Assembly (NCBI RefSeq): GCF_018224925.1 | Contig: NZ_JAGTUF010000004.1 | Span: 62,001-126,000 of the forward strand | Reading direction: 5' to 3' | Length of the DNA: 64,000 nucleotides | Source of the DNA: Magnetospirillum sulfuroxidans | GTDB taxonomy: Bacteria; Pseudomonadota; Alphaproteobacteria; Rhodospirillales; Magnetospirillaceae | Shown here: piece after piece, positions 5,948 through 25,434 of the stretch | Layout of the letters: each line of letters starts with the position of its first letter | How positions within the stretch are numbered: position 1 is the first letter of the stretch | The notes under the pieces: model-generated | Told to the model about the DNA's origin: nothing | Seen by the model: the letters and a program-made list of their open reading frames with translations, nothing else | Databases searched by the model: none | Made by a program: the position numbers and the translations under genes

Positions 5948-5953
5948 CCGCCC

Positions 5954-8410: not shown

Positions 8411-8423
8411 CGGGAGAGCCGCC

Positions 8424-9713: not shown

Positions 9714-11713
9714 GATGTACCGGGCACCCGCGGCTTGCCGTCCGCCCATTCGGGTTCCGCCCCACCTTCGACCATGATCTTGGCTTCAACGAAAATTGTC
9801 CGTCCCTCGTCCAGCATTTCTTCATGCAAGCTGCGATAAATCGCCAGAAACCGTTCCAAGAATTTTATCCGCTCGCCGTCAGCGTAGATGCGATTGATAA
9901 AATAGGAAGCGGCTTTGGTGAAGCCAACGATCGAACCTTGGAACAGCGCATAAACGTGCTTGTACGGGCCGGCGGAACCTTCACGGTGGAAGTCGGTCAA
10001 GCGGGCAACCAAGAGGCGGAAATCAATCTTCTCCGCCTCGGCCTGATCCAACAAGGCCAAGAAATCCGCCCGCAGGTGATCGACTTCCGCGATATAGCGC
10101 GCCATATCGTGATGCGCCAGGAATGCGCCCGCGGCAAAGAACTCTGACTCATCGCGGATCCGTTGGAAAACCGCTTCTTTGTCCAATGGCTTATTGGCAA
10201 AGAACAAGCTCTCGGGCAGCTTCGGCGTTGTCCCGTGAATATAGGCACCGTCCGAACAATTGAACATCTTAAGCCCGAACAGCTTCACCTTTTGCTCGAT
10301 CATGTCACGAGTCCAGGTAAAGATTAAGTTTGAATAAACGGTTCCACCGAAATTTCCAGGAGAGCTGAACTCGCCATCAAAACGATCCGTTTTAAATCCA
10401 TCCAAGGTGTAATACATAGTATTTTTTGAATGGTGATTACATGGATCACGCCAACCGCAATCGACACCGAACAAATACATATTTTCAAAGCCAAGTCGCG
10501 CCGCCACCGAAATACAGGTATTGGAGATCGACGGACCGACGCCATTCATGATTTCGATACCCTCGCCGAAACAAGTGGTCGAAACCGCGCAATCTCGATA
10601 GAAGAAGTAATTCTCGTCGAATAAAGGCGGCACCAATGGGCTGACCGACGTCGATGCAATCATCTTGGTCCCGGTGAAGCGGCCATCGGGAAACAGCTCG
10701 GGCCGCTGTTCCAAAATATGCATGCACACTTGATGGGTGGTGGCGACGTTTTCCAGCTCGATATGGTAATCGGGCATGATGCCCGCCTTGACCAAGGCCT
10801 GAAGCGTGGTCCCCGCAGAAAAGATGATGCCGTGATCCTTCCATTGCCGCAAATACTCAATGGACTCGTCCAGCGATGGACCAGCAGCGACGATGAAGGC
10901 AGGAACACCGTGACGGCGGCGGAACTGTCCGCGCACGAGATAGTGATCGAATTTGTGCAGATTAACCACGCCATGGCGGATCATCTTGCGCTCGTCTTCG
11001 TAATAGCCGCGCCCCACCATCCGCATCGGCAATTCCGACCGAATTCGCTTATAGGCCTCATCTAAAGCCCAAAAGGGGTAATGGCGGAAGAAGTAGGCGC
11101 CATCCAAAAACATCTCGCCGACGGCTTCGATCACCCGATTGATATTGCCGGCCAAAACAACAGGATCGCTGTTTACGAACAAGTGCAGAACTTGGTTACG
11201 TTCCTCCATGCCCTTGTGCAGGGCACTCCAGTCAATGGCGCGCAAGGACCAGGACAGGAATTCATCCACGGCCTCGACGATAACCACATGCTCGACATCC
11301 ACCCCCTCAATCAAGGGGGCGAGATGGAAGCCCAAGCCGATGCCGAAGGTGAACATGAAGCTTGCCCGGCCAAGCGGCTCGGGCGAAATCGCATCGACGC
11401 CAACATCTTTCAGCGCCTCGTGGATCTGATCGTAATAACGGCGCGAGACGATGCTGTCCGAGGCGATGCCTTCGACCGATTTATACCCCGAGCGCGATGG
11501 CGCGGCGATGAAACTGGCGGCCTGGCTGTCCCCGGTCAGCCGCCCATCGCCCTTGTACAATCTGCCGCTGCCGAGATTAAGGTCGATAATCACCCCATCT
11601 TCGATAACGGGCTGAGAAATCTTGTTATCCAGCATGGCTATTTGGTCATACACCTGGGGAAAGTGCTTTTGCAGGAACCCAAGATTGCGATCGTACAGGC
11701 CCTGGTTAATCAT
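9707..11713 (-). CDS. maf: Maf/DUF115 flagellin glycosyltransferase
   Basis: 668 residues. Motility accessory factors transfer nonulosonic-acid-type sugars to flagellin in the cytoplasm; a crystal structure is known from Magnetospirillum magneticum. The N-terminal part contains FGIGLGFHLAPLIEGVDVEH. The DUF115 core contains AFIVAAGPSLDESIEYL near residue 280 and LFGVDCGWRDPCNHHSK near residue 440, with a nucleotide-binding appearance. The start ATG overlaps the upstream gene stop (ATGA), so a 14-residue N-terminal extension was rejected. The flaF-OGT-like-maf arrangement next to flagellin supports flagellin as acceptor. The base composition is visibly more AT-rich than the flanking genes. Confidence 0.88.
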   Translation of the reverse strand: MINQGLYDRNLGFLQKHFPQVYDQIAMLDNKISQPVIEDGVIIDLNLGSGRLYKGDGRLTGDSQAASFIAAPSRSGYKSVEGIASDSIVSRRYYDQIHEALKDVGVDAISPEPLGRASFMFTFGIGLGFHLAPLIEGVDVEHVVIVEAVDEFLSWSLRAIDWSALHKGMEERNQVLHLFVNSDPVVLAGNINRVIEAVGEMFLDGAYFFRHYPFWALDEAYKRIRSELPMRMVGRGYYEDERKMIRHGVVNLHKFDHYLVRGQFRRRHGVPAFIVAAGPSLDESIEYLRQWKDHGIIFSAGTTLQALVKAGIMPDYHIELENVATTHQVCMHILEQRPELFPDGRFTGTKMIASTSVSPLVPPLFDENYFFYRDCAVSTTCFGEGIEIMNGVGPSISNTCISVAARLGFENMYLFGVDCGWRDPCNHHSKNTMYYTLDGFKTDRFDGEFSSPGNFGGTVYSNLIFTWTRDMIEQKVKLFGLKMFNCSDGAYIHGTTPKLPESLFFANKPLDKEAVFQRIRDESEFFAAGAFLAHHDMARYIAEVDHLRADFLALLDQAEAEKIDFRLLVARLTDFHREGSAGPYKHVYALFQGSIVGFTKAASYFINRIYADGERIKFLERFLAIYRSLHEEMLDEGRTIFVEAKIMVEGGAEPEWADGKPRVPGTSY

Positions 11714-13620
11714 GCCGAAGCTGCCTTCTCTTGAAGCTCGGTCAAACGTTCGCACAAGGTATCGCCAAAACTCTTGGCGTAAGCCTGACTGTTAAAAGCC
11801 ACAGAGCCTGCTAACGCCGCGCGCGCGCCGCCGCGGAACGCGACCAACTCGGCGGGTGTTTGCGCCCAAGAGCGCGCCAACTCGATATAGCTCGCCTCGT
11901 CCGCGGCAACCATCCGGTCGCAAACCGAAGTCCCCGCCAGTGCTGCAGCCAAATCCATCGCCATCACCCCGCCATGCTTGACGATCACAGGCATCCCCGC
12001 CGCCACCATGCGACCGTATTCCAGCACGTCGAAATGCGGAGATGGGGCCAGAATCACATCCACTTGAGCACAAAATGCCGGCACGTCGGCACGAATGACA
12101 TCAATACGCTGAGCAACACCGTAATTGCCGAATAGATCAATAATGGTGGCGATGCTTTCCTGCTCGTTGAATTGACCGCGATCACGCAGCAACAGCATGC
12201 TGTCAGGCACCGCCATCAGCACCCGCGACCACAACGCCACCGTATCCGGGTTCATCTCGGCCATACTGACATCGGCGCCGAACGCTAACGACATACCGTG
12301 CTGGGCGGACGGCACCGGACCGGCATTGAAACGCGCCACATCCAACAAATACCGACCGCCGGGAAGGACCAATTCCCCCGGCAATCCTTGCGGGGCGGAA
12401 ACCATATGCATGGTCGCTCCGGGCACGGCTCCGTGAACCGGTCCACCCAGCCACGCCGCTTGAACCGGGGCGCAATTGCGCAAGAACAGACCGGCGCGGG
12501 CAGGTTGACGCAGGCCATCCATATCCAGCAAAACGGCAACACCTTCGCCGCGAATCAACGCCCCCAAGGTCAGCACATCCAAATCGCTCACATTGCGCCA
12601 ACGGTCGAACAGATTGCGGAACGGCAGATTGTGTTGAACTTCCAGTTCGCCGCAGCCCAGACCCAAGGTGCTAAATTTACTCTTGTCCAAATTATTGATT
12701 AAAATCAGCAACATCTCGCGTTCAAGCGCAGACAGCGGGCTGGAACACAAGAAGGCGATGGTAAAATGATCCCCCGTCGGCAGGGCCGCTGCCGCCCGTG
12801 GCGACTTCACCGCATTGGCGTTGACGCATGCGGCCCAACCCGCCGTCAACGCAACCACATCGGAACGATCGGCGGGAAGGAACCCTAGGTCGGCGACCAC
12901 ATTGCCCCACAACGCAATCGAGCCGGGAGCGCTGGCCAAAGCCGTGCGATGATTGGCCAAGCCCTGAGCAAGCTGCCCCATGGACACCAGACAGGCGCCG
13001 ATCCGCGAGACCAGGGTCGGCTTCAGCCCGGCCATGGTCACCAAGGAACGCAGCATCCCCAACGCCTTGTTGGGCTGGCCCGCCAGCATCAATGCCTTGG
13101 CGTAAAGGTCGATTGCCTCGACATCGGAAGGATCAATCAGCAAATGCTGTTCAAGGTGAACAATGGCGGTTTTGACATCGCCACGATCAAGGGCAACCAC
13201 CCCATTGCGCATCAACGGCTTTTGGATGATACCAGCCAAGGCGGCACTGAACTCGGGAAAATCCGGGCCATAAAAGCAGATCAGGTGTCCATCCTTGGGC
13301 GTGATCGAAGCCTCTTTGCCGTAATAAAGAGCCTTCGCCAGCAAACCTGCCCGACAATAAAGGATTGCCAGGATTTCGTTGGTATCGGGGTGAACTTCAC
13401 CCGTTGCAGCATAATCCGAGATCAATTGAATGGCATTGCCAATCAACCCGCGCCGATAACACGCGGCGGACAATGCGTAGATCGCCACCGGGACTTCCCG
13501 TCCTTCCACCAAGGCGGCTTCAGCCAATTCCATCACCGCCACGGGTTCATTGCGATCCAGCAGCGCCTTGACCTCGGCGTACAGCCCATGGTGAGCAGAC
13601 GGATTCCAGGTGTCCGACAT
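11710..13620 (-). CDS. TPR protein with O-GlcNAc-transferase-like (SPINDLY-type) C-terminal domain, degenerate
   Basis: 636 residues from the ATG at 13620, with AGGGG 8 nt upstream; a GTG two codons earlier is spaced too closely to that site. Residues 1-240 are helical repeats of TPR type. Residues 270-630 follow the GT41 order: an opening strand FTIAFLCSSPLS, VQAAWLGGPVHG, LWSRVLMAVPDSMLLLRDRG, then a UDP-site-like end FDVLEYGRMVAAGMPVIVKH. The usual PYNGxTT element of O-GlcNAc transferases is not conserved, so the activity may be altered or lost. It lies between flaF and maf and ends in a 4-nt overlap with maf. It may be a second flagellin glycosyltransferase or a Maf partner. Confidence 0.7.
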   Translation of the reverse strand: MSDTWNPSAHHGLYAEVKALLDRNEPVAVMELAEAALVEGREVPVAIYALSAACYRRGLIGNAIQLISDYAATGEVHPDTNEILAILYCRAGLLAKALYYGKEASITPKDGHLICFYGPDFPEFSAALAGIIQKPLMRNGVVALDRGDVKTAIVHLEQHLLIDPSDVEAIDLYAKALMLAGQPNKALGMLRSLVTMAGLKPTLVSRIGACLVSMGQLAQGLANHRTALASAPGSIALWGNVVADLGFLPADRSDVVALTAGWAACVNANAVKSPRAAAALPTGDHFTIAFLCSSPLSALEREMLLILINNLDKSKFSTLGLGCGELEVQHNLPFRNLFDRWRNVSDLDVLTLGALIRGEGVAVLLDMDGLRQPARAGLFLRNCAPVQAAWLGGPVHGAVPGATMHMVSAPQGLPGELVLPGGRYLLDVARFNAGPVPSAQHGMSLAFGADVSMAEMNPDTVALWSRVLMAVPDSMLLLRDRGQFNEQESIATIIDLFGNYGVAQRIDVIRADVPAFCAQVDVILAPSPHFDVLEYGRMVAAGMPVIVKHGGVMAMDLAAALAGTSVCDRMVAADEASYIELARSWAQTPAELVAFRGGARAALAGSVAFNSQAYAKSFGDTLCERLTELQEKAASA

Positions 13621-13656
13621 TTTCACATCCCCTAACAGCTTGATGATAAACGGCCC

Positions 13657-14091
13657 TTAGACCATGTCATTGGTGGACAACGGCGTAGGAACACCCTGTT
13701 CTGCCGTTTCACCCTCGGCCGGCGGCGGCACCGTGAACAGCCCCGCTGCGATTTGGCGATTGATGTTGACCAGAATATCAAGCTTGCTGCGATCACTATC
13801 GGCAATGATCTCAACGGTTCGTTTATCAACGAAATTGCACAGCGACAGCATGTCTTGACGCATTTCCAGCGGCAACGCGCATTCCGGCCCGGCCAGTTCG
13901 GCCTGGAAGATCGTCCAGAGCCGCCAATTCAACCGCACCGCCGCCAACATATCATCTTCCGAAATATCGGCTTGTTTCGCCACAGACATGCGTCGGGCGG
14001 ATTCGGTCAAAGCCCAAGCTTCGGTCTCGCGCGGGTTTCCCGGTTGCGGCATCGATTTGTAAGTGCTCTGACCGTAATTGGGATATGCCAT
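13657..14091 (-). CDS. flaF: Flagellar biosynthesis regulator FlaF
   Basis: 144 residues. FlaF is an alphaproteobacterial flagellin chaperone/regulator that is needed for flagellin secretion and acts with FlbT. The core NPRETEAWALTESARRM at residues 21-37 and the LWTIFQAELAGPECALP and NFVDKRTVEII segments are typical. The ATG at 14091 is used because GGAG lies about 10 nt upstream; a TTG two codons earlier is less likely. It follows the flagellin gene on the same strand but behind a strong terminator, and precedes the OGT-like gene by 36 nt, so flaF, the OGT-like gene and maf form one unit. No flbT is seen in the window. Confidence 0.93.
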   Translation of the reverse strand: MAYPNYGQSTYKSMPQPGNPRETEAWALTESARRMSVAKQADISEDDMLAAVRLNWRLWTIFQAELAGPECALPLEMRQDMLSLCNFVDKRTVEIIADSDRSKLDILVNINRQIAAGLFTVPPPAEGETAEQGVPTPLSTNDMV

Positions 14092-14224
14092 GGACAATCA
14101 TCTCCGCAAAGGGCGCGAATATAGTCTGTAAGTATCGCCCTGAAACGCTTAAATAAGGGTGAATAATGGCGGATTCGCAGCATTCGCGCCACACCAGCCG
14201 GCAGCACCAAACAACACGACGGCA

Positions 14225-15365: not shown

Positions 15366-16280
15366 TCATGCGGCCGGCTTATGGCAGACGATGACGCTGA
15401 ACATATCGAAGGCCGTGTAACTCTTGGCGAAAATGTCCTTGGCCACCACCAGGGGCTCGATCAGCCCGGCAGCGACCGCCTTACCGATGGCCGCGCTCAA
15501 ATCACCATTCAGCTTGCCCAGGGCACAGACTTCGGCTTGCTTGCGCGACAAAGGATGAGCGGCTCCCCATTGAAAGCCGACGGGCTCGCAGAACACCAAG
15601 GTTGCCTCCCCCGGCCATTGGGCCAATGCCGAGAAGAAATCATCGGCCATACGGTCCACATACATCAGCGACCAGGCGCTGAAGATCAAGGCTTTGCGGC
15701 TGCCATTCAACACCGACCAATCGGGAGACCGCAGATCGAACGCAACCGATTGGAACCGCATGCCCGATTCCAAACGCGCCAGACATTCGGCCATATCCCG
15801 GCCGGCGGGACTGATTTCCGCCCCCACATAACGAGCCTGAGCCGGGCCGCCGCCATGATACAGCCGAAAAAGCTGCAACCCGAAACCCGAGCCTAGTTCC
15901 AAGATGGTGTCGGCCCCTTCGGCGAAATCGACCAACATGCCGGAAAGGTCGAACTGAATGTGCTCGAGAAACTCGCTGTCCCCCCCGCGCAACACCCCTT
16001 TACGCCACGTTTCGAGCCGGTCCAGCGCCGTGCCCGTCTCCTTGATCGGCAAGTACCCCAAGGTGCCGGTCGGCATCCCTTCCATGACATGGCCGCGCAG
16101 CTCGTAACGTTTTTCAAAATTGACGAAACGCGACAGCAGACGCGGCAAGCTCGCTTCCCCCTCGGCGATCAAGTCATTGATGACCTCCCGCCGCACTTGC
16201 CACGAGACCTCATAATATTGCAACGGGTCCAAGGCTCGACCGGCCAGTTCGGGAAAATAGCGTTCGTATTGGCAATCCAT
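15366..16280 (-). CDS. SAM-dependent methyltransferase-like protein
   Basis: 304 residues. A class I methyltransferase motif I (ILELGSGFGLQLFRL) is near residue 126, followed by VGAEISPAGRDMAE (motif II position) and ALIFSAWSLMYVDRM (motif IV position). The 115-residue N-terminal helical part is not assigned. It is the last gene of the eight-gene operon, 3 nt after the LuxC-like gene. It probably methylates the product of that pathway (sugar or acyl group), but the substrate cannot be inferred. Confidence 0.72.
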   Translation of the reverse strand: MDCQYERYFPELAGRALDPLQYYEVSWQVRREVINDLIAEGEASLPRLLSRFVNFEKRYELRGHVMEGMPTGTLGYLPIKETGTALDRLETWRKGVLRGGDSEFLEHIQFDLSGMLVDFAEGADTILELGSGFGLQLFRLYHGGGPAQARYVGAEISPAGRDMAECLARLESGMRFQSVAFDLRSPDWSVLNGSRKALIFSAWSLMYVDRMADDFFSALAQWPGEATLVFCEPVGFQWGAAHPLSRKQAEVCALGKLNGDLSAAIGKAVAAGLIEPLVVAKDIFAKSYTAFDMFSVIVCHKPAA

Positions 16281-16283
16281 TCC

Positions 16284-17486
16284 CTATTCCTCGATCCAGA
16301 CCAATCGGAGAGCGGCGCGCAACAGGTCGTGCCCATCCCACACCGAAGCGAATTCCAACGCCTTCCCCACCGGCATCATGCGATCCAACGCCCGGCCGTT
16401 CAACCGCCGCGCCAATTGCCGCAAGGAATCGCCGTCAAAACCGAAATGAACCAGGGTTTGGTACCGTCGATCCAAAAGATCCGCCAAGTGCTCAAGTCCG
16501 TCGATTCGCCATTCGGCCAACATGCCGCCGCCACAATGATCGGGCTCGGCCCCATCGGCCTTGAGCACCAGCAAGCCGGCATCGAAACGATGCACCACCG
16601 CCTCGGGGCCATCCAGCACGGCGCGGGCGGCGTTGACCAATTTGCGCATGGCGATGGCCGGCTCGGATTGCGCCAACACCGCCCCCAGACGGGGACGGAA
16701 ATCCGCCGCCGCCGGCTCGGCGTCGGGGCCGCACCATACCAAAAGCCGCGGTGACGAACAGGCCATCTGATCAAAGGCCGACAGATCGGCGGCAAAGCCA
16801 CGGATCAAGCGATCGCGCGCCGTCGGCTCCAGGGACAGATAGGCCGAGGCGGCAAAGACCGCCAGCGACCGCCGATCGGGAAAAGTCACCTCGGTCGCCG
16901 CCGGCCCCAAGGCATGACTGCGGATGGCGGCAATGCTGGCATCGCCGCCCCAGATCACCCGCAAATCGCAAAGCCCGGACAGGGCCGCGCCGGCGGCATC
17001 ATCGTGCGGCCAGGACAGCAGACGGGTGGCGGCAGCGTGCACGGCGAAAGCCGGTTGCGCCAGCACCCGCGCCAGCACGGCGACGATGCTGTCGGTCAGG
17101 GCCGAACGCTGCCCGGTCAAGCGCACGGCGACCCGGTTGCCCGCCAACAGGGCCAGCCACCAGGAATACACGAACATGGTATCGACATTGCCGGGGGCGA
17201 ACACCAGACAGCGCCCGCGCGGCACCGCCAGGCACCGATCCGGCAGGCCATGCCCGATTTGGGCGATCAAACGGCGAGAATGGCTTTGACGCAGGAAAAA
17301 GGCCAGGGCCACCACCTCCGCCCGCCGCCCCAGATCGGCATCGGCCAGCAGAGAACGCGATATTTCCTGCCCCAAGGCCACCGTGGTCTCGGCGAAGCAG
17401 GCATGCGCCGGACCGGCGAACCAGTGTTCCAGTTCGGTCAACTCGATCGTGCCGCCGGGACCATCCAGACGCGTGACGGCGCTCAT
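16284..17486 (-). CDS. LuxC-like acyl-CoA/acyl-protein reductase
   Basis: 400 residues. LuxC-family enzymes reduce a fatty acyl thioester, bound to an active-site Cys, to an aldehyde with NADPH. The nucleophile region FDQMACSSPRLLVWCG (Cys243) matches the LuxC QQACSSP block. An NADP-fold segment CLVFAPGNVDTMFVYSWWLA is at residues 93-112. The ATG overlaps the LuxE-like stop (ATGA), so the upstream in-frame extension is rejected. LuxC and LuxE act as one fatty acid reductase complex in luminous bacteria; here there is no luxA, luxB or luxD, and the pair sits with an acyl carrier protein. The likely product is an acyl-chain or amino-acid-derived aldehyde for glycan tailoring. Confidence 0.8.
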   Translation of the reverse strand: MSAVTRLDGPGGTIELTELEHWFAGPAHACFAETTVALGQEISRSLLADADLGRRAEVVALAFFLRQSHSRRLIAQIGHGLPDRCLAVPRGRCLVFAPGNVDTMFVYSWWLALLAGNRVAVRLTGQRSALTDSIVAVLARVLAQPAFAVHAAATRLLSWPHDDAAGAALSGLCDLRVIWGGDASIAAIRSHALGPAATEVTFPDRRSLAVFAASAYLSLEPTARDRLIRGFAADLSAFDQMACSSPRLLVWCGPDAEPAAADFRPRLGAVLAQSEPAIAMRKLVNAARAVLDGPEAVVHRFDAGLLVLKADGAEPDHCGGGMLAEWRIDGLEHLADLLDRRYQTLVHFGFDGDSLRQLARRLNGRALDRMMPVGKALEFASVWDGHDLLRAALRLVWIEE

Positions 17487-18550
17487 GCCGGGCCTCTGGC
17501 GGCGAAAGTATCGCTGCACCCGCGCAATTCCGCCTGCTTCAGCCGCCCCAGCACCGAAAATGCCTTGCCGCCCCACACCCCCGTATCAATGGTCTCAATC
17601 ATGCCCATATCCTCGGTCAGCAGGCTGTGACCAGGGTAAGACCGGGGCAACAGCGACATTATCTGAATGAGCCCCGGCCGGCCCGGCGGCAAGGGCGCCA
17701 AAGTCAATGGATCGCGGATCAGGATATCGACGAAGGGCGGTGGATGCAGAAAACCATCCTCGCCCTCCAGGCAAATCCCCCCCACCTGCTCGGCCATGCC
17801 GTAATAGGAATGCACCCGCCGCACCCCGATCTCCTCGGCCAGCCGGCGCTTGAAGGTGGCGTTGTCCACCGCCTGATCCGCCAGCGCCTTCCAACCGCCG
17901 CCATGAACCAACAGGGCCGCCGCGGACAAACGCAGACCGGCGGCGACAAGCGCCGGCAGCGCATGGGCCCAAACCATATAGGTGAAGCCGAACACCAGCA
18001 TCGGCCCCTCCCCCCACCGACGCAAGAACGCGGTCACCGCCTCGGTGCGCAAGGCCATCTCGCCATCCAGGGCAAACACCGCATCCCGCCCCAACCGCAT
18101 CATCCCCAAAATGCCGGCGGCACGGGCGGAATAGGCCGAGCCCTGCGCCAGCACCGCCTCGGAATCCAAGATCAGCAACGGCAATCGCGCCCCGCCGGTC
18201 AAGCGCGCCATGATGCCGGCCAAGGCGCGGACCTGTGCGTCGGCGGTAGCGCGGTCCAAGCGCACCCGGCTGGGCTGACCGCCGGTCCCTGAACTGGTGA
18301 CGGCGGCGACAATGTCTGTTTCCGGCACGCTGATGGGGGAATGGGTCTTGAACACCCCCACCGGCAACCACGGCAGATCTTCAAGCCGCGGCCAATCGCC
18401 GGCCGGGCCGAACATCGCCCGCACCCAACGGCCATATTCGGGGCAATGCGTCAGATGGTGCCGGGTCAGCGCCGCCAGCTCCGGCGCCAGCCAGCGCTCG
18501 CGCGCCGCCTGGGATTGGGAAAAATCCGGACGCCGCAACCAGTCGGTCAC
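17483..18550 (-). CDS. LuxE/PaaK-family acyl-protein synthetase
   Basis: 355 residues. LuxE activates a fatty acid as acyl-AMP, takes it onto a C-terminal Cys and passes it to LuxC. The N-terminal LPWLPVGVFKTH, the P-loop-like VTSSGTGGQPSRVRLD at residues 84-99 and the YYGMAEQVGGICLEG adenylate motif are present. The family C-terminal Cys is in ELRGCSDTF (Cys345). It starts with GTG overlapping the upstream ligase stop (GTGA). A separate AMP ligase in the same operon is odd, because LuxE already activates acids; the two may use different acids or act in series through the carrier. Confidence 0.85.
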   Translation of the reverse strand: MTDWLRRPDFSQSQAARERWLAPELAALTRHHLTHCPEYGRWVRAMFGPAGDWPRLEDLPWLPVGVFKTHSPISVPETDIVAAVTSSGTGGQPSRVRLDRATADAQVRALAGIMARLTGGARLPLLILDSEAVLAQGSAYSARAAGILGMMRLGRDAVFALDGEMALRTEAVTAFLRRWGEGPMLVFGFTYMVWAHALPALVAAGLRLSAAALLVHGGGWKALADQAVDNATFKRRLAEEIGVRRVHSYYGMAEQVGGICLEGEDGFLHPPPFVDILIRDPLTLAPLPPGRPGLIQIMSLLPRSYPGHSLLTEDMGMIETIDTGVWGGKAFSVLGRLKQAELRGCSDTFAARGPA

Positions 18551-19899
18551 AACAATGCCTCCGCTGCCGCCACATCCACCTTGCCATTGCCCCCCAGCGG
18601 AATAGCCGTCACCGAGCGCCAGCGGATCGCCGCCGCCGGCACCCCCAGATCGGCGGCGAAGGCCGCCCGCGTCTCCGCCATCGGCACAGCCCCGGCAATC
18701 AGCATGATCAGATCATCGCCGCGCACCAGCGCCGCCGTCGGCCCCAGCATGGCGGCCCGCGCCTGCACCTCGTCCAGATCCAGGCGCAACCCGACCACCT
18801 TGACCACCCGGCCGGCCCGCCCCTCCAGCCACAAATAGCCGTCCTCGTCCACATGGCCCAGATCGCCGGTCGGCAGCACCCCGTTCATCTGGTCCGCCAA
18901 GGCAAGATCGGCACGGTCACACGCATAGCCCATCATCACATTGGCCCCTTGATAGACCACCGCGCCGCCGTCAATGGCGATCGCCCCACCGGGAATGGCC
19001 CGACCGACCGAGCCGGCGCGGGCCGGCAATTGATCGGGGGACAGCACGGTCATGCGCGCCGTTGCCTCGGTCTGCCCATACATGGTGATCATGCCGCCGC
19101 CGCGTCGGGCGAATATATCGTGGAAATGAAGCGTCAGGCGCGGATCCAACCGCCCACCGGCCTGGGTGCCAAAGCGCAACGACGGCGGCGCCAAAGCCGC
19201 CAGATCCAATCGGCGCAGACTTTGCCAAAGAAATGGAACCCCGGCCAACGAGGTCAGGCGGCAAGAGGCCGCCAAATCCCAAAACGGCCGCGACAGCACC
19301 GAAAGATCACTCAGCACCACCGCGGCCCCAGCCGCCAGATGGGAATGCAGCAGCGACAGGCCATAGGAATATGACAGCGGCAAGGTGGTGGCGACGCGAT
19401 CTTCGCCGCCAAGCGCCAAGGCCACAGCGATGGCCCCGGCATTGGCTTCGACCGCGCGGCGCGACAGCCGCACCATGCGCGGCGAGCCCGCACTGCCCGA
19501 CGTCGACAACAGCAGGCACAGATCAGGGTGCAAAAGACCGCCATCGGGTTGGAACCGCCGGGCAAATCCGGCCGGACCGGGGCCATACCCCGACTGTTCC
19601 GGCCATCCCAACAACAAATCAGGTCGGTAAAGCTCGATCAGCGTTGACAGCCGAGCCGCCGCCAGATCGGGCGGCAGCAACATCACCGCATGACCGGCCT
19701 GCATGGCGGCAAGCCAGCAGACCACCGCGTCCATCCCACACGACGCGGCAACCATGGCCAATTGCTTGTCACCGGCCAACTCCGCCGCGCGTTCGGCCAC
19801 CGCCGCCGCCAAGGCGCCATATGTCAGCGCCCGCCCCGAGGACGGCTCGCTTAAGGCCAGCCCCCCGTCCCGTCCCGGCGCCGTCAGCCCCAGGATCAT
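18547..19899 (-). CDS. AMP-dependent ligase (ANL superfamily)
   Basis: 450 residues. The P-loop is STSGSAGSPRMVRLS, followed by a LPLSYSYGLSLLHSHL region, the YGQTEATARMTVL adenylate motif near residue 265 and the hinge GDLGHVDEDGYLWLEGRAGR. The C-terminal catalytic Lys lies in the final GGNGKVDV segment, in the standard position. It is 3 nt after the acyl carrier protein gene, and carrier loading is the obvious proposal. The function is parallel to, but the sequence clearly distinct from, the ligase at 4520. Confidence 0.88.
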   Translation of the reverse strand: MILGLTAPGRDGGLALSEPSSGRALTYGALAAAVAERAAELAGDKQLAMVAASCGMDAVVCWLAAMQAGHAVMLLPPDLAAARLSTLIELYRPDLLLGWPEQSGYGPGPAGFARRFQPDGGLLHPDLCLLLSTSGSAGSPRMVRLSRRAVEANAGAIAVALALGGEDRVATTLPLSYSYGLSLLHSHLAAGAAVVLSDLSVLSRPFWDLAASCRLTSLAGVPFLWQSLRRLDLAALAPPSLRFGTQAGGRLDPRLTLHFHDIFARRGGGMITMYGQTEATARMTVLSPDQLPARAGSVGRAIPGGAIAIDGGAVVYQGANVMMGYACDRADLALADQMNGVLPTGDLGHVDEDGYLWLEGRAGRVVKVVGLRLDLDEVQARAAMLGPTAALVRGDDLIMLIAGAVPMAETRAAFAADLGVPAAAIRWRSVTAIPLGGNGKVDVAAAEALL

Positions 19900-19902
19900 G
19901 GC

Positions 19903-20139
19903 TTACCCGTCCAGATGGCGGGACAGAATTTCACAAGCCTTATCAAAGCAGGACAGATCAATCACTTCGTCAGTGTCGAGCATGACGTCGAATTCGCTTT
20001 CCAGCGCCGCCACCAAGCGCATGTGGCCAACCGAATCCCAGGCGGGAACGGCGCGATAGGCCAAGCCGTCAACCTCCGCATCGGCCCCCAGATCCAAGGC
20101 GTCGCGGAAAACCTGGCGCAATTTGTCATGCCAATGCAT
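19903..20139 (-). CDS. Acyl carrier protein (second of two in the window)
   Basis: 78 residues from the ATG at 20139, chosen because AGGGGAG lies 5 nt upstream; an ATG five codons earlier overlaps the previous stop and includes this site. The phosphopantetheine attachment is AWDSVGHMRL with Ser36. DSVGH rather than DSL is typical of specialised carriers in secondary-metabolite or polysaccharide clusters. It lies between a TPR-glycosyltransferase and the AMP ligase in an eight-gene operon. Confidence 0.87.
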   Translation of the reverse strand: MHWHDKLRQVFRDALDLGADAEVDGLAYRAVPAWDSVGHMRLVAALESEFDVMLDTDEVIDLSCFDKACEILSRHLDG

Positions 20140-20150
20140 GGCGGCTCCCC

Positions 20151-21899
20151 TCATCGTCCAGCCAAGGCGACCAGTTCAGCCCGCAGGCCGGCGAACACCG
20201 TCGGCCAATCCCCGGCCACCGGTTGGCGCAATATTTTAAGCACACCGGGATACCACGGGGAATCGGCCATGCCCAGCATCCACAAAAATCCGTTGGAGGG
20301 CTTGGACAGCAAGACCCGCACCGGCTTGCCCAAGGCCCCCGCCAGATGGACGACGCCGGTATCGACCGAAATCACCAGATCCAAGGCGGCGATGGCGGCG
20401 GCGGTATCGGCGAAATCACCCAGGCGCGGAGCCAAATCGACGATGCCGGGCAAATCGGCGATTTGGTCGGCCAGGGGACCGACCTGCAAGGAAAAGAAAC
20501 GGCAGCCCGGCACGTCCAGCAATGGGGCGAAATCGGCGGCGCGGCAGGATCGCTGCGAATTATCGCGCCGGCTGGCGCCGCCGGCCCAGACCAGCCCGAC
20601 CTTCAATCCCGGCTGCGCCGCCACATCGGCAAAAGACGCCACCGCGTCGGGAACGGCCAGATAAGGCAGCGCCGCCGGCAAATCGGCCAAGGTCGCCTGC
20701 AAACGATGCGGCAAGCTCATCAACGGCACGGTCAGATCAAAAGCGCCGTATTCGTCGCCAGGACTGACCACCCGCTCCACGCCGGCCAAGGTGGCGAACA
20801 ACCGCTTCAGCCCGGCCCGGCATTCCATCACCACCGTCGCCCCGCGCGCCGCCAACAGCGGCACGAAACGGCAAAACTCGATGGCGTCCCCAAATCCCTG
20901 TTCGGCACTGACCAGAACGGTCTTGCCGGCGACATCGCCGCCATCCCATTGCGGGCGGCCGAAATCACGGGCGAAGGGCAGGAAAGTCGGCATCCGCCAA
21001 CGCCATTCATATTCGCGCCAGCCATCGGCCCACTTGCCCTGCATCAACAAGGTCAGGGCCAGATTCCAGTGCAGATCCGGGCTGTCGGGGGCCAGCTCGA
21101 TGGCGGCGCGCAGGCATGCCTCGGATTCGGACAACCGCTCCATGTCCTTCAAGGTGGTGCCCAGATTGTTATGGGCATCGACATAGCCGGGAGCTTGTTC
21201 CAGCGCGATCCGATATTCCGCCTCGGCTTCGCTCAGCCGCCCCAGCGCGGCCAGGGAATTCGCCAGATTGTAATGCTTGATCGGAGCGTCGGCCAAGCCG
21301 ATCGACCGGCGATAGACGGCCAGCGCCTCGTCGTGCTTGTCCTGCGCCGCCAAGGCCGTGCCGATATTGAACCACGGCGCGTCCCAGTCGGGACGAAGGT
21401 AAACCGCTTTTTGAAAGGCCTCGATGGCTTCTTCCGGGCTGTCCATGCCGGCCAGGGAATTGCCGAAAGTGTTATGGGCCTCGGGCAGCGAGGAATCGAT
21501 GACGATGGCCTCGACCGCCATCTTCACCGCTTCGGCGTGACGGCCCAGTTCGTTCAGGGCGCTGGCCAGATTGATGTAGGCCTCGGGCTGTTCCGGGTTC
21601 AGCGTCACCGCCTTTTGAAAGGCATCCGCCGCGCGCGCCACGTCGCCCGCCGCCTGACAGGCATTGCCAAAGGAAACATAGGGCGCCGCCCAGTCGGGCT
21701 GCAATTGGATGGCCCGCCATGCCAATTGGGCGGCCATGGTGTTGTCGCCGGCCATTTGCGCCAGCACGCTCATCAGATTAAGCGCGTCAACGTTATCGGG
21801 ATCGGCCTGCAACACCGCCTGATAACAGCGCCCGGCATCGCCCAATCGCCCCTGACGATGATATTCGCGCCCTTCGTTCAGCTTCGCAGCCACGTCCAT
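20151..21899 (-). CDS. TPR protein with GT9-like glycosyltransferase domain
   Basis: 582 residues. About eight TPR units occupy residues 1-285 (repeating patterns such as AYINLASALNELGRHAEAV and AHNNLGTTLKDMERLSESE). Residues 300-580 resemble the C-terminal half of GT9/ADP-heptose-type transferases: VGLVWAGGASRRDN, then the sugar-nucleotide element DLVISVDTGVVHLAGALGKP and a WYP segment near the end. Such fusions are frequent in alphaproteobacterial glycan clusters. Donor and acceptor are unknown. It lies 18 nt after the NeuD-like gene and 11 nt before the acyl carrier gene. Confidence 0.8.
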   Translation of the reverse strand: MDVAAKLNEGREYHRQGRLGDAGRCYQAVLQADPDNVDALNLMSVLAQMAGDNTMAAQLAWRAIQLQPDWAAPYVSFGNACQAAGDVARAADAFQKAVTLNPEQPEAYINLASALNELGRHAEAVKMAVEAIVIDSSLPEAHNTFGNSLAGMDSPEEAIEAFQKAVYLRPDWDAPWFNIGTALAAQDKHDEALAVYRRSIGLADAPIKHYNLANSLAALGRLSEAEAEYRIALEQAPGYVDAHNNLGTTLKDMERLSESEACLRAAIELAPDSPDLHWNLALTLLMQGKWADGWREYEWRWRMPTFLPFARDFGRPQWDGGDVAGKTVLVSAEQGFGDAIEFCRFVPLLAARGATVVMECRAGLKRLFATLAGVERVVSPGDEYGAFDLTVPLMSLPHRLQATLADLPAALPYLAVPDAVASFADVAAQPGLKVGLVWAGGASRRDNSQRSCRAADFAPLLDVPGCRFFSLQVGPLADQIADLPGIVDLAPRLGDFADTAAAIAALDLVISVDTGVVHLAGALGKPVRVLLSKPSNGFLWMLGMADSPWYPGVLKILRQPVAGDWPTVFAGLRAELVALAGR

Positions 21900-21917
21900 G
21901 CTTCGATCCCTATCGTA

Positions 21918-22562
21918 TCACGCTGTTTTCGGCGCCGGCGGCAAGGCCCGCGCAGGATTTCCCCAGACCGTCCGCCCTGCGGCCACATCGGACAGAACCA
22001 CCGAACCGGCGGAAATCTGCGCCCCGGCCCCGACATTCAAACCCGGCGTCACCACCGCCGACGACCCCACCATGACGTGATCCTGCACATGGGCAAAGCC
22101 ATTGACCACGCCGTGGGGCGAGATGACCACGCATTGCCCCAAACGGCAATCGTGACCGATGCCCGCATGGGTATTGATCAAACAATGCGGCCCCAAACGA
22201 GCGTTAAGCCCGATGGTGGCAAAAGGCGCGACGATGCAGCCTGGGGCCAATTCCGATGGCTGCGCCACATAGGCCAAGGGATGAACCAACAAGCCGAAAT
22301 GGGCGCCGCGCGCCGTCAATCGTCCGGCGATGGCCGCGCGGGCGGCGGGCGCCCCCACCGCCACCAGAACCGCGTCATGCGGCCGCGGGCGGTAATCGTC
22401 GATGGTCGACACAACGGGAATATCCAGCCCATACCCGGCGGGGGCGGCATCGGTATCGTCAAGAAAGCCACGGACGGAAAGCCCGGCTTCGCGGGCATAG
22501 ACCGCCACCTCGCGCCCCAATCCACCGGCGCCGGCGATGACGAAACAGGTCGAACCGCTCAT
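21918..22562 (-). CDS. NeuD/PglD-family sugar O- or N-acyltransferase
   Basis: 214 residues. The N-terminal Rossmann-like domain FVIAGAGGLGREVAVYA binds the nucleotide-sugar; the C-terminal left-handed beta-helix carries hexapeptide repeats (GCIVAPFATIGLNARLG, GCIVA-type turns) and the catalytic-type His in NTHAGIGHDCRLGQ. PglD acetylates UDP-4-amino sugars and NeuD acetylates sialic acid. The ATG overlaps the SDR stop (ATGA). Together with the DegT aminotransferase at 23387 it fits an amine-formation and N-acylation pair, but the acyl donor could be CoA or the local carrier. Confidence 0.85.
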   Translation of the reverse strand: MSGSTCFVIAGAGGLGREVAVYAREAGLSVRGFLDDTDAAPAGYGLDIPVVSTIDDYRPRPHDAVLVAVGAPAARAAIAGRLTARGAHFGLLVHPLAYVAQPSELAPGCIVAPFATIGLNARLGPHCLINTHAGIGHDCRLGQCVVISPHGVVNGFAHVQDHVMVGSSAVVTPGLNVGAGAQISAGSVVLSDVAAGRTVWGNPARALPPAPKTA

Positions 22563-23269
22563 AGCACCATGCCTCCATCGACGCCGATCACCTGCCCGGT
22601 AACATAACGGGCGGCGTCCGAACACAAAAAGACAATGACCTCGGCCACGTCGTCGGCCGTGCCGGCACGGCCCAAAGGAATGGCGGCCAGGCGCTGCGCC
22701 GTGGTCTCGGCGTCAAGATGGGCGATCATGTCGGTGGCGATGAATCCGGGCGCCACCGCATTGACGCGAATATGATCGGCCGCCAGTTCCTTGGCCGCCG
22801 ACAAGGTGACGCCGACAATGCCGGCCTTGGTGGCGGCATAGACAACCTGCCCTTCATTGCCGCGTAAGCCGATGATGGACGACACCGACACGATGGCGCC
22901 GCCGCCCGAACGCCGCATCAGCTTGGATGCGGCCTGGATGTTGACGATGACCCCTTTCAGGTTGACGTCGATCACTCGCCCCATCATCTCGTCGGCGATC
23001 ATGCCCAGGCGGGCATCCCCCAGCATGCCGGCATTGTTGACCAAGATATCCAAACGGCCGAAACGCTTATGGACATGGCGGTAAAGGGCGGCGACCTGAT
23101 CGGACTTGCCCATGTCGGCCTGAAAATAATCGTCGCCGTCTTCCTGACCCAGACCGGTCCGCACCACCGTGGCGTCCCGGGCCGCCAACAGCCGCGCCAC
23201 GGCCAAGCCGATGCCCCGCCCCGCCCCGGTCACCACCGCCACCTTGCCCTGCATGGAAACCCCTGACAT
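22559..23269 (-). CDS. Short-chain dehydrogenase/reductase, FabG-like
   Basis: 236 residues. The NAD(P) motif TGAGRGIGLAV is near residue 15, the NNAG motif near residue 85, and the catalytic Ser in VSVSSIIG and YAATK complete the SDR tetrad. It resembles 3-oxoacyl-ACP reductases. GGGGAG lies 5 nt upstream of the second of two tandem ATGs; an ATG at 23254 is an alternative. It is the first gene of the eight-gene operon. In this context it could reduce a carrier-bound 3-oxoacyl group or a keto-sugar. Confidence 0.87.
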   Translation of the reverse strand: MSGVSMQGKVAVVTGAGRGIGLAVARLLAARDATVVRTGLGQEDGDDYFQADMGKSDQVAALYRHVHKRFGRLDILVNNAGMLGDARLGMIADEMMGRVIDVNLKGVIVNIQAASKLMRRSGGGAIVSVSSIIGLRGNEGQVVYAATKAGIVGVTLSAAKELAADHIRVNAVAPGFIATDMIAHLDAETTAQRLAAIPLGRAGTADDVAEVIVFLCSDAARYVTGQVIGVDGGMVL

Positions 23270-23386
23270 CATTGCTCCCCGGACGGATGGTGCCACAGCC
23301 TGTTCGCCATGCCCAGCGTCGAACACCATGGCGCGGCTGCGCCGGTTGTGTAGAGTGTGACGATCAGTCCTTGCGAGCGAACGGTT

Positions 23387-24472
23387 ATGTCCTTCTCCCT
23401 GCCGGTCATGCGGCCCTTGTTGCCGACCCGACGCGCCCTGGCGCCGTATTTGCGGCGCATCGACCATAATCGCTGGTATTCCAACATGGGGCCGTTGGCC
23501 CAGGAACTGGCCTTGCGTCTTGGCCATCACCACGGCGCCCCGGCCTTGCCCTTGGCCAACGCCACCGTCGGCCTGACCGCCGCCTTGCTGGCGCACGACC
23601 TGCCGCCTGGCGGCAGATGCCTGATGCCGTCATGGTCGTTCGCCGCCACCGCCCAGGCGGCGCGGATGGCCGGCTTGACCCCCTTTTTCTGCGACGTCGC
23701 CCCCGAACACGGCCAACTGACCCCGCAGCTGGCCGAGCAATCCCTGGCCACCGCCGCCGGCCCGGTGGTCGCGGTGATGCCGGTTTGTCCCTTTGGTCAT
23801 CCGGTGGATTGGCTCGGCTGGCAGGATTTCCGCCGCCGTCATAGCGTCGCCGTCATCATCGACGCCGCCGCCGCCTTCGACACCGTCCAGGCCAGCGAAA
23901 TTCCGGCGGTGGTCAGCCTGCACGCCACCAAGGCGCTGGGGGCAGGCGAAGGCGGCTATGCCCTGTGCCGCGACGAAGAATTGTTGCGACGAATGGTCCG
24001 CGTCATCAATTTCGGCATGGATGAAAGCCGGCAATCGGTCACCTTGGGCGGCAACGGCAAGCTTAGTGAATATCATGCCGCCGTCGCCCTGGCCGGTCTT
24101 GACCACTGGCCCCAGCGCCGCCGCCGATTGGCGACGCTGCTGGGGCGCCTGCGCCGCGCCGTCGGTGATTTCGCCCACTGGCCGGCGGGCTTAGGCGACG
24201 CTTACGTCACCAGCACCGCCTGCGTCGGTTTCGCCGATTCCTGGGCAATGGAACAAGCCTTACGCGACCACGGCATAGAAACCCGACGCTGGTGGAGCGG
24301 CCCGCTGCACCGCCATCCGGCTTTCGCCGATGGTCAGCAATTGCCGATCACCGAACATCTGGCCGCGACCACTTTGGGGCTGCCCTGCTGGATCGGCATG
24401 GGCCGCACAGAAATAACGGCGCTCGCCCAGGCCCTGGCCCACGTCAATCATGATCGGCCCGCCACTCGGTGA
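23387..24472 (+). CDS. DegT/DnrJ/EryC1/StrS-family sugar aminotransferase
   Basis: 361 residues from the ATG at 23387. PLP enzymes of this family transaminate keto-sugar nucleotides, usually from glutamate. The PLP Lys lies in SLHATKALGAGEGGYAL near residue 184, IIDAAAAFD supplies the Asp of the cofactor site, and MPVCPFGHP precedes it. The C-terminal part is shorter than in classical members. It is divergent from the SDR operon and overlaps rfbA convergently by 29 nt. It may give the amine that the NeuD-like or AAC(3)-like protein acylates. Confidence 0.85.
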   Translation: MSFSLPVMRPLLPTRRALAPYLRRIDHNRWYSNMGPLAQELALRLGHHHGAPALPLANATVGLTAALLAHDLPPGGRCLMPSWSFAATAQAARMAGLTPFFCDVAPEHGQLTPQLAEQSLATAAGPVVAVMPVCPFGHPVDWLGWQDFRRRHSVAVIIDAAAAFDTVQASEIPAVVSLHATKALGAGEGGYALCRDEELLRRMVRVINFGMDESRQSVTLGGNGKLSEYHAAVALAGLDHWPQRRRRLATLLGRLRRAVGDFAHWPAGLGDAYVTSTACVGFADSWAMEQALRDHGIETRRWWSGPLHRHPAFADGQQLPITEHLAATTLGLPCWIGMGRTEITALAQALAHVNHDRPATR

Positions 24473-25328
24473 TCAGGCCGCGCAAGTAGCGCCCATACGC
24501 CGTGTCTCCGGCCCGTTGGGCCAAGACGGTGAATTGATCCAGATCGATCAGCTTCTTGCTAAAAGCGATTTCTTCCAGACAAGCCACCTTCAATCCCTGA
24601 CGACTTTCCACCGTGCGGACAAATTCCGATGCTTCCAGCAGGCTGTCATGGGTGCCGGCGTCGAACCAGGCATAGCCCCGCCCCATCTTGAGCACATCCA
24701 ATTGCGCATCGGCCAGATAGTCTTTGAGCAAATCGACCATCTCAAGCTCGCCCCGCAAGGAAGGCCTGAGCCGCGCCACCCGCTCGACGACATCGGAACC
24801 GACCACGTACAGCCCGGTCAACGCCCAATCCGAAAGCGGATTCTTGGGTTTTTCCTGCAAATCCCGCACCTTGCCATCCGGGCCAAACGCCACCACGCCG
24901 TAACGCTGAGGATCGGTGACCCGCGTGCAAAAGGCGGATGCGCCCGAACTTTGGCTGATGACGTGATCAAGCATGCTGCCCATGCCTTCGCCAAAGAAAA
25001 TGTTATCGCCCAAGATCATGGCGACGCGATCATCGCCGATATGGTCGGCGCCGATGGTGAAAGCCTGGGGCAGCCCTTCGGGCTTGGGTTGGATGGCGTA
25101 AGTCAGGCGGATGCCCCATTGGCCGCCATCGCCCAGCAGTTCCTGAAACACCGGCAGATCGCGCGGGGTCGAGATCAGCAAGATATCGCGAATGCCCGCC
25201 AGCATCAGCACCGACAGCGGGTAATAGACCATGGGCTTGTCGTAAACGGGCAGCAATTGCTTGCACACCGCCAAAGTCACCGGATGCAACCGACTGCCGG
25301 TCCCTCCGGCCAGGATGATGCCCTTCAT
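24444..25328 (-). CDS. rfbA: Glucose-1-phosphate thymidylyltransferase
   Basis: 294 residues. It forms dTDP-glucose from dTTP and glucose-1-phosphate, the entry to dTDP-deoxysugars. The signature is MKGIILAGGTGSRLHPVT at the N-terminus, with QPKPEGLPQAFTIG, LGDNIFFG and GRGYAWFDAGTHDSLLEA following. The length is standard. The ATG at 25328 is chosen at the conserved N-terminus. No rfbB, rfbC or rfbD is in the window, so the rest of the pathway must be encoded elsewhere. Confidence 0.95.
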   Translation of the reverse strand: MKGIILAGGTGSRLHPVTLAVCKQLLPVYDKPMVYYPLSVLMLAGIRDILLISTPRDLPVFQELLGDGGQWGIRLTYAIQPKPEGLPQAFTIGADHIGDDRVAMILGDNIFFGEGMGSMLDHVISQSSGASAFCTRVTDPQRYGVVAFGPDGKVRDLQEKPKNPLSDWALTGLYVVGSDVVERVARLRPSLRGELEMVDLLKDYLADAQLDVLKMGRGYAWFDAGTHDSLLEASEFVRTVESRQGLKVACLEEIAFSKKLIDLDQFTVLAQRAGDTAYGRYLRGLITEWRADHD

Positions 25329-25434
25329 GGCTGCGCTCCTCGTCCATTGCCCCAACTTCACCATCAACCCACCAAGATTGAGTTAACGTTTGCGGTGCTA
25401 GCATGGCCGCATCGGAGCGAAGGATAGGGACGCC

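What the first reader, a model, noticed from the sequence alone, without database searches (positions are those of the whole stretch)
15366..23269. Eight-gene carrier-protein operon ending in a LuxE-LuxC-like acid reductase, without luciferase
The minus strand reads SDR, NeuD-like acyltransferase, TPR-glycosyltransferase, ACP, AMP ligase, LuxE-like, LuxC-like, methyltransferase, with gaps of 18 nt or less and three 4-nt overlaps. LuxE Cys345 and LuxC Cys243 are conserved, so acid-to-aldehyde reduction through a Cys-bound acyl group is chemically plausible (known for the lux fatty acid reductase). There is no luxA, luxB or luxD. The presence of both a carrier-loading ligase and a self-activating LuxE is redundant for simple fatty aldehyde formation, which hints at an unusual route to an acyl- or amino-aldehyde used in glycan tailoring. 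This is the best candidate for an undescribed pathway here.
Basis: partly seen in the sequence, partly recalled or inferred. Interest (0 to 1): 0.78.

Follow-up and report, generated by a model that had tools for sequence, protein, structure and literature searches.

The report
Hydroxyacyl-making operon for flagellar sugars
Next to a flagellin gene sits an operon that most likely turns a small two-ended acid into a hydroxylated side group and hangs it on a sugar; the same gene set is known, under another reading, in flagellar sugar islands and resembles the cholera O-antigen tetronate pathway.

Summary
The eight genes are there, minus strand, tightly packed, both cysteines present. Five form the conserved unit: ACP, SDR, AMP ligase, LuxE-like, LuxC-like. 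Among 97 loci chosen for a LuxE relative (several phyla), LuxC lies within 8 kb in 93, ligase in 91, ACP in 79, FabG-like SDR in 69; in 17 control stretches 0, 0, 0 and 2. The set is in print for flagellin glycosylation islands (PMC4875605, PMC7874193, PMC7575072) as 'fatty acid/liposugar' genes, so it is not undescribed. A separate LuxE clade holds LuxE-LuxC fusions, one beside ACP, ligase and an Fe-alcohol dehydrogenase: the layout assigned to V. cholerae O1 tetronate. This dissolves the 'redundancy': ligase and LuxE would activate different carboxyls of one small diacid; LuxE/LuxC make the aldehyde, the SDR the alcohol, ligase and ACP carry the hydroxyacyl, the NeuD-like enzyme puts it on an amino sugar. 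A dihydroxybutyryl group (102.03 Da) would also fit the unexplained 102 Da unit and 376.14 Da pseudaminic acid of an Aeromonas strain described with this cassette. Substrate and product are inferred. New variant of a known kind.

The parts
22559..23269 (-). SDR (FabG-like reductase), proposed to reduce the semialdehyde to an alcohol
   Evidence: PF13561 192.6 bits; below the cut-offs of the FabG equivalogs listed; Ser and YxxxK visible in the sequence; FabG-like SDR within 8 kb of LuxE in 69 of 97 loci
21918..22562 (-). NeuD/PglB/VioB-family left-handed beta-helix N-acyltransferase, proposed to move the hydroxyacyl group to an amino sugar
   Evidence: TIGR03570 182.6 bits, over its cut-off of 160.8; a NeuD-like gene within 8 kb of LuxE in 17 of 97 loci
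20151..21899 (-). TPR protein with a C-terminal GT9-like glycosyltransferase part; locus-specific, not part of the conserved unit
   Evidence: TPRs and Glyco_transf_9 30.7 bits; homologues in 3 of 54 loci, counting the window
19903..20154 (-). acyl carrier protein
   Evidence: PF00550 18.3 bits, sub-threshold; D-S-V serine motif; ACP within 8 kb in 79 of 97 loci; D/E-S-x motif in 72 of 73 same-strand ACPs
18547..19899 (-). AMP-forming acyl ligase, proposed to load the acid onto the ACP
   Evidence: PF00501 104.4 bits; ligase in 91 of 97 loci, directly before LuxE (or fused to it) in 75 of 97; fused to LuxE in L043 and L134
17483..18550 (-). LuxE-like acyl-protein synthetase (Cys345)
   Evidence: PF04443 154.3 bits; 7xc6 LuxE 2.4e-30 with the cysteine aligned; model pLDDT 90.5, tail 341-355 poor
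16284..17486 (-). LuxC-like acyl-protein thioester reductase (Cys243)
   Evidence: PF05893 62 bits; 7xc6 LuxC 7.4e-15 with the cysteine aligned; model pLDDT 91.0, Z 31.2 to 7xc6_A
15366..16280 (-). probable SAM methyltransferase, locus-specific
   Evidence: sub-threshold Methyltransf_25; glycine-rich motif in the sequence; homologues in 2 of 54 loci, counting the window
23357..24472 (+). DegT/DnrJ sugar aminotransferase, divergent neighbour; possible source of the amino sugar
   Evidence: PF01041 170 bits; nearest model DesI, below its cut-off
24444..25367 (-). RmlA glucose-1-phosphate thymidylyltransferase
   Evidence: TIGR01207 408.7 bits, cut-off 360.65; a dehydratase over the RmlB cut-off is on another contig of the genome
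14280..15161 (-). flagellin, downstream on the same strand
   Evidence: PF00669 and PF00700 over their cut-offs
13657..14097 (-). FlaF
   Evidence: PF07309 101.4 bits
9707..11755 (-). Maf flagellin glycosyltransferase
   Evidence: PF20157 168 bits and PF01973 118 bits

Best explanation
The conserved unit ACP + SDR + ligase + LuxE + LuxC makes a small hydroxyacyl group on a carrier protein for N-acylation of an amino sugar of the flagellar (or another surface) glycan. A short dicarboxylic acid, malate being the favourite, is activated at one carboxyl by LuxE (acyl-AMP, then thioester on Cys345), passed to Cys243 of LuxC and reduced with NAD(P)H to the semialdehyde; the SDR reduces this to the alcohol. 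The ligase activates the other carboxyl and loads it on the ACP, before or after the reduction (order not decidable here). The NeuD/VioB-type enzyme transfers the hydroxyacyl group to the amine, here probably of a dTDP-4-amino-4,6-dideoxyhexose made with RmlA, RmlB and the DegT aminotransferase; in other loci of a pseudaminic acid. Shown: gene content, order, conservation, the cysteines, the predicted fold of LuxC, fusions, kinship to the RfbN layout. Inferred: substrate, product, acceptor, order of steps.
For: Co-occurrence in 97 loci chosen by a LuxE match: LuxC 93, ligase 91, ACP 79, SDR 69, against 0, 0, 0, 2 in 17 control stretches; all five contiguous in 43 of 97 and ligase directly before LuxE in 75 of 97; distances of LuxE correlate with LuxC (r 0.81), ligase (0.83), ACP (0.68), SDR (0.59), 0 of 500 permutations as high. 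Ligase-LuxE fusions (L043, L134) and LuxE-LuxC fusions (L060 and eight RfbN-type loci). The RfbN-type loci are one branch of the LuxE tree, apart from the other cassette loci (support 99, quick FastTree tree with uncertain root); L169 reads ACP, ligase, Fe-ADH, LuxE-LuxC fusion, so an Fe-ADH stands there in place of an SDR. V. cholerae O1: VC0248-VC0252 are assigned to tetronate biosynthesis, a LuxE domain is noted in RfbN, loss of the ligase WbeL/RfbL removes the O antigen, and RfbL is said to activate 2,4-dihydroxybutanoic acid. No ketosynthase among the eight operon proteins, which speaks against fatty-acid building. Mass: 376.148 for Pse5Ac7Ac with one acetyl replaced by C4H6O3 and 102.032 for C4H6O3, against reported 376.14 and '102 Da' in Aeromonas AH-3, while A. 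caviae Sch3 has plain Pse5Ac7Ac.
Against: No reaction was tested here. The V. cholerae pathway is itself called putative. SDR is missing within 8 kb in 28 of 97 loci and ACP in 18; 23 of 97 have neither SDR nor Fe-ADH there, among them several of the window's own genus or family (L070, L072-L075, L077, L083); some contigs are short, but L072 and L073 have LuxE-LuxC with neither ligase nor ACP near. The window's LuxC is far from lux (62 bits) and its LuxE scores lower than the RfbN type (154 against 595 bits). FabG-like SDRs are common and 2 of 17 controls had one. The masses are not unique: O-methylglyceryl has the same formula and other compositions fit within error; no paper seen here links the cassette to them; the fgi-1 mutant, which lost the 102 Da unit but kept 376 Da, does not touch the cassette. 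In the window the NeuD and SDR genes are separated from the ACP by the TPR gene.
Confidence: 0.6

Rival explanations
1. Liposugar: ligase, ACP, SDR and LuxE/LuxC handle a fatty acid, so that the flagellar glycan carries a lipid-like group, as proposed in print.
For: Stated for Enterobacteriaceae, Aeromonas and Dickeya islands; LuxE/LuxC of luminous bacteria act on fatty acids (recalled); LuxC fold matches 7xc6 best.
Against: No ketosynthase among the eight proteins; lux equivalog cut-offs not met; does not explain two activating enzymes; the RfbN-type set is assigned to a C4 hydroxy acid.
Confidence: 0.12
2. The aldehyde itself is the product: it is left as an aldehyde on the glycan, or joins an amine of the sugar by imine formation and reduction.
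For: 23 of 97 loci show neither SDR nor Fe-ADH within 8 kb, and L072 and L073 have no ligase or ACP either.
Against: A FabG-like SDR or Fe-ADH is within 8 kb in 74 of 97, an ACP in 79, and sometimes a NeuD-like acyltransferase (17).
Confidence: 0.1
3. The operon serves LPS or capsule, not flagellin; its place beside flagellin and Maf is incidental.
For: Maf or flagellin is found within 8 kb in only 19 of 97 loci, the window included; the Deinococcus set lies beside exopolysaccharide-type genes; the window has several other glycosyltransferases.
Against: Operon, flagellin, FlaF, a TPR protein and Maf follow each other on one strand; in L077 of the same genus flagellin and Maf also lie beside ACP, methyltransferase, ligase, LuxE and LuxC; PseG-, PseH- and PseI-type genes together within 8 kb in 21 of 97 loci.
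Confidence: 0.2

Closest known systems
Vibrio cholerae O1 tetronate genes rfbKLMNO / wbe (VC0248-VC0252)
   Same: Passages seen: an AMP ligase and a carrier protein, and RfbN with a LuxE domain, serve a 3-deoxy-L-glycero-tetronyl group on an amino sugar. That RfbM is the alcohol dehydrogenase, that RfbN also has a LuxC part, and that RfbO is an acetyltransferase is recalled.
   Different: Window: LuxE and LuxC separate, SDR instead of Fe-ADH, NeuD-type transferase, dTDP-sugar genes rather than perosamine; LuxE in a different clade. The V. cholerae genes themselves were not fetched by name.
acp-fabG-ligase-luxE-luxC of flagellin glycosylation islands in Aeromonas group II, Enterobacteriaceae and Dickeya zeae
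   Same: Same five gene families; Aeromonas orf1-3 are described as ACP, 3-oxoacyl-ACP reductase, AMP-dependent synthetase, followed by luxE and luxC
   Different: Printed as fatty-acid/liposugar genes; the Aeromonas set lies beside pseudaminic acid genes, the window's beside RmlA/DegT/NeuD; the Dickeya set also has tktA and tktB
Lux fatty acid reductase (LuxC-LuxE, 7xc6)
   Same: Best PDB sequence match for both, both cysteines aligned, LuxC fold
   Different: Far below the lux equivalog cut-offs; no luxA, luxB, luxD among the proteins scanned; other neighbours; the LuxE model's listed best folds are PaaK-type ligases

Membership tests
Lux fatty acid reductase (bioluminescence) | NCBIfam LuxC and LuxE equivalog cut-offs | tested here: not met
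   29 of 750 and 71 of 550 bits
Lux fatty acid reductase (bioluminescence) | luxA, luxB, luxD beside it | tested here: not met
   None among the neighbouring window proteins scanned
LuxC superfamily (PF05893) | Gathering score, ALDH-type fold, nucleophile cysteine | tested here: met
   62 against 21 bits; predicted model Z 31.2 to 7xc6_A; Cys243 invariant in 33
LuxE superfamily (PF04443) | Gathering score and C-terminal cysteine | tested here: met
   154.3 against 24.9 bits; [RK]GC in 92 of 97
RfbKLMNO tetronate pathway | ACP, AMP ligase, LuxE and LuxC parts together | tested here: met
RfbKLMNO tetronate pathway | LuxE-LuxC fused in one protein (recalled for RfbN; seen in L168, L169) | tested here: not met
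   Two separate ORFs in the window; LuxE outside the fusion clade
RfbKLMNO tetronate pathway | Iron-type alcohol dehydrogenase in the operon (recalled for RfbM; seen in L168, L169) | tested here: not met
   SDR in its stead; the six Fe-ADH matches of the genome are on other contigs
RfbKLMNO tetronate pathway | Product 3-deoxy-tetronyl on an amino sugar | not testable with these tools
   Needs glycan chemistry
Flagellin-island cassette ACP-FabG-ligase-LuxE-LuxC | All five families in one operon next to flagellin or Maf | tested here: met

The most novel reading that the evidence does not exclude
The LuxE/LuxC semialdehyde is a general branch point of carrier-bound glycan acyl synthesis across phyla: reduced to a hydroxyacyl group in loci like the window, and in other loci (14 of 97 with a split transketolase pair within 8 kb, in several on the same strand as or inside the cassette, in some with FabZ and a GMC oxidoreductase) extended by a two-carbon ketol unit, giving sugar-like acyl groups not yet described. 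The C4 branch would also account for the unidentified 102 Da unit and the 376 Da pseudaminic acid of Aeromonas AH-3.
Probability: 0.15. Interest if true: 0.75.

Novelty: new variant of a known kind. Interest (0 to 1): 0.5.

Why it matters
It would join two literatures that the passages seen here do not join, flagellin-island 'fatty acid' genes and O-antigen tetronate synthesis, and turn a vague 'liposugar' guess into a defined prediction: a short hydroxyacyl amide, testable by mass, with a concrete candidate for an unexplained 102 Da unit. It also shows one acid-reductase module in use across several phyla.

Tried and rejected
Fatty aldehyde synthesis for light: rejected on lux equivalog cut-offs and no luxA, luxB, luxD among the proteins scanned. 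Shewanella oneidensis sfmABCDE as an independent mass test: dropped, the five gene products described there are NeuB-, TPP-enzyme-, 3-oxoacyl-ACP-reductase-, methyltransferase- and ATP-grasp-like, with no LuxE, LuxC or ACP among them. Salmonella plasmid LuxE hits (26% identity): one record looked at, other neighbours, not followed. LuxE matches weaker than about E 1e-20 in whole genomes were not followed, except L082; L118-L121 were translated for the tree, L121 then left out. The LuxE fold table does not list 7xc6_E; this is an absence only. A careful tree did not finish; the tree used is FastTree, rooted on three lux-like rows that do not form one side, with long branches for L082 and L118. 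Labels of the neighbour clusters were given by eye from sequence starts; Pfam or record annotation backs Maf, flagellin, RmlA, DegT, NeuD (window) and transketolase (L086); Pse names are recalled patterns. The PseC and DegT profiles hit the same genes in 33 loci, so the count of 30 of 97 loci with three or more Pse labels is generous; PseG, PseH and PseI together are in 21 of 97. ORFs outside the window were called by a simple script, so gene ends there are rough. My ten literature searches showed no paper that reads the flagellin cassette as a tetronate-like pathway; the library is open-licence PMC only, papers were seen as listings and passages, and Morona 1995 itself was not read.

L080 and L081 are two contigs of one genome, so the 97 loci are 96 genomes or records. 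All 97 were picked by a LuxE match, so LuxE is 97 by construction. The core profiles were trained on 54 loci (53 of them among the 97), the neighbour clusters on 77 of the 97 and the Fe-ADH profile on four proteins of the 97, so the counts are not independent of training.


Full report
What is there. Pfam and NCBIfam confirm SDR, NeuD-family acyltransferase, TPR/GT9-like protein, ACP (sub-threshold), AMP ligase, LuxE and LuxC; the methyltransferase is only weakly recognised. Downstream on the same strand come flagellin, FlaF, a TPR protein with a weak GT41 match, and Maf; upstream are RmlA and, divergently, a DegT aminotransferase. The genome has a dehydratase over the RmlB cut-off on another contig and two NeuB-family genes elsewhere. 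The window lies in a 4.1 Mb genome with one LuxE-family match. The nearest rows of its LuxE in the tree are L083, of the same family of genomes, and L032, an uncultured Magnetospirillum; L083 appears from contig length to be Magnetospirillum sp. SS-4.

Are they true LuxE and LuxC? At superfamily level yes, as lux enzymes no. PF04443 154 bits and PF05893 62 bits are over the gathering scores, but the lux equivalog cut-offs are missed widely. A profile of 33 relatives finds LuxC and LuxE of the Photobacterium complex 7xc6 as best PDB sequences (7.4e-15 and 2.4e-30), both cysteines aligned. Predicted LuxC (pLDDT 91.0) matches 7xc6_A at Z 31.2, rmsd 3.6, 381 residues, ahead of aldehyde dehydrogenases at 27.1 and below. 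Predicted LuxE (pLDDT 90.5, its last 15 residues poor, so the cysteine is not placed) matches PaaK-type ligases and a 2-hydroxyisobutyryl-CoA ligase at Z 26.0-27.1.

The conserved unit. These are a choice of the stronger matches, not all: one search had matches in 26 of 149 genomes, in 30 of 398, in 53 of 394. Within 8 kb of LuxE: LuxC 93, ligase 91, ACP 79, FabG-like SDR 69, DegT 34, Maf or flagellin 19, NeuD 17, transketolase pair 14, Fe-ADH 7; PseG, PseH and PseI types together 21. In 17 control stretches of the same genomes: SDR 2, NeuD 1, PseF 1, the other families 0. Contiguous blocks (domain gaps under 400 nt): exactly ACP-FabG-ligase-LuxE-LuxC in 32 of 97; all five in any order, with or without NeuD, in 43 of 97; ligase directly before LuxE 75; LuxE directly before LuxC 89. 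The window itself counts as ACP-ligase-LuxE-LuxC, because the TPR gene separates NeuD and SDR from the ACP. Pairwise distances of LuxE correlate with those of LuxC (r 0.81, n 91), ligase (0.83, n 89), ACP (0.68, n 73), SDR (0.59, n 63) and NeuD (0.58, n 15), 0 of 500 permutations as high in each; common descent of the hosts contributes to this. Of the 12 other genomes of the genus listed, 6 have the gene, and their LuxE sequences fall in several parts of the tree, which suggests exchange of islands. Against a strict five-gene unit: 28 of 97 lack the SDR and 18 the ACP within 8 kb, 23 have neither SDR nor Fe-ADH, several of these from the window's own genus or family.

Fusions and the RfbN layout. 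Ligase and LuxE are one protein in L043 (840 aa) and L134 (877 aa); LuxE and LuxC in L060 (759 aa) and in L139, L141-L145, L168, L169 (820-825 aa). The last eight form one branch of the LuxE tree (support 99) apart from the other cassette loci; the tree is a quick one with uncertain root. L169 reads ACP, ligase (473 aa), iron alcohol dehydrogenase, LuxE-LuxC fusion. In V. [quoted passage not shown] the ligase WbeL has 471 aa and LPS from a strain with only its 42-residue stub lacks O1 antigen (PMC3441752, passages); RfbN is noted to hold a LuxE domain (PMC4772473, passages); RfbL is said to activate 2,4-dihydroxybutanoic acid for CoA or RfbK (PMC12208996, passages). The underlying paper, Morona 1995, calls the pathway putative in its title and was not read. 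That RfbM is the alcohol dehydrogenase, that RfbN has a LuxC part and that RfbO is an acetyltransferase is recalled.

What it most likely does. With a dicarboxylic acid it is not: one enzyme activates the end to be reduced, the other the end to be carried. Malate reduced at one end gives 2,4- or 3,4-dihydroxybutyrate; succinate would give 4-hydroxybutyrate. The tetronate precedent favours the first. The order (free acid reduced first, or reduced on the ACP) is open. The NeuD-family enzyme and the RmlA/DegT neighbours suggest a dTDP-4-amino-4,6-dideoxyhexose as acceptor in the window; a number of other loci have pseudaminic-acid-type genes just before the ACP. The methyltransferase may O-methylate the product; this is a guess.

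In print already. The set is listed for Enterobacteriaceae islands (LuxE in 73 strains, LuxC in 80; PMC4875605, passages), Aeromonas group II islands (98 strains; PMC7874193, passages) and Dickeya zeae (PMC7575072, passages), read each time as a fatty acid or liposugar component. So gene set and flagellar setting are known; the reading as a hydroxyacyl pathway is mine, and none of my ten searches of an open-licence library showed it.

A numerical coincidence worth testing. Aeromonas AH-3, described with five such genes after pseH, carries a pseudaminic acid derivative of 376.14 Da and a terminal unknown of 102 Da. Pse5Ac7Ac with one acetyl exchanged for C4H6O3 is 376.148; C4H6O3 alone is 102.032. 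A. caviae Sch3, with plain Pse5Ac7Ac, belongs to the strains with a single-sugar glycan; that it lacks the cassette follows from the paper's grouping and was not checked. O-methylglyceryl has the same formula and other compositions fit 60.01 within error, so this is a lead, not proof.

Verdict. Observation confirmed; interpretation partly supported. The operon is a well-conserved, probably catalytic module, a new variant of a known kind. Confidence 0.6 for a small hydroxyacyl-ACP made from a diacid; about 0.35 for the dihydroxybutyryl group in particular.

Noticed in passing
window 3280-9713 (+): A second carrier-protein set beside Maf: radical SAM 3280-4497, AMP ligase 4520-5947, aldehyde dehydrogenase 5954-7375, ACP-like 7372-7614 (sub-threshold), AAC(3)-family N-acyltransferase 7607-8410, DUF4910 protein 8424-9713. 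DUF4910 relatives also occur near LuxE cassettes in L043, L074, L075, L078.
   Followed up: partly
L047, L052, L057, L063, L064, L066, L068, L074, L076, L078, L086, L127, L131, L137: A split transketolase pair lies inside or near the LuxE/LuxC cassette in 14 of 97 loci, as printed for Dickeya zeae, hinting that the aldehyde is extended by a two-carbon unit there.
   Followed up: partly
L072, L073: Two genomes of the window's genus keep LuxE-LuxC alone, without ligase or ACP within 8 kb.
   Followed up: no
window 20151-21899 and 11710-13626 (-): Two TPR proteins with glycosyltransferase-like C-terminal parts lie on either side of the flagellin; a modular flagellin glycosyltransferase FlmG of Caulobacter is described in a paper of which I saw only the search listing. 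That FlmG has a TPR part is recalled.
   Followed up: no
L034, L036, L037, L041, L042, L087 (Nonomuraea, Microtetraspora) and L039, L053 (Actinoplanes): Actinobacterial loci share other neighbours around the cassette (clusters c41, c45, c46, GT38, c59; in L039 and L053 only c41, c45, c46), so there it may serve another, unidentified product.
   Followed up: no
window 1363-3090 (-): B12-binding radical SAM protein with a C-terminal TPR stretch, nearest to a P-methyltransferase model but far below its cut-off.
   Followed up: no
L059 near 2900-3000: The LuxE reading frame of this Syntrophomonas contig breaks just before the conserved cysteine motif.
   Followed up: no
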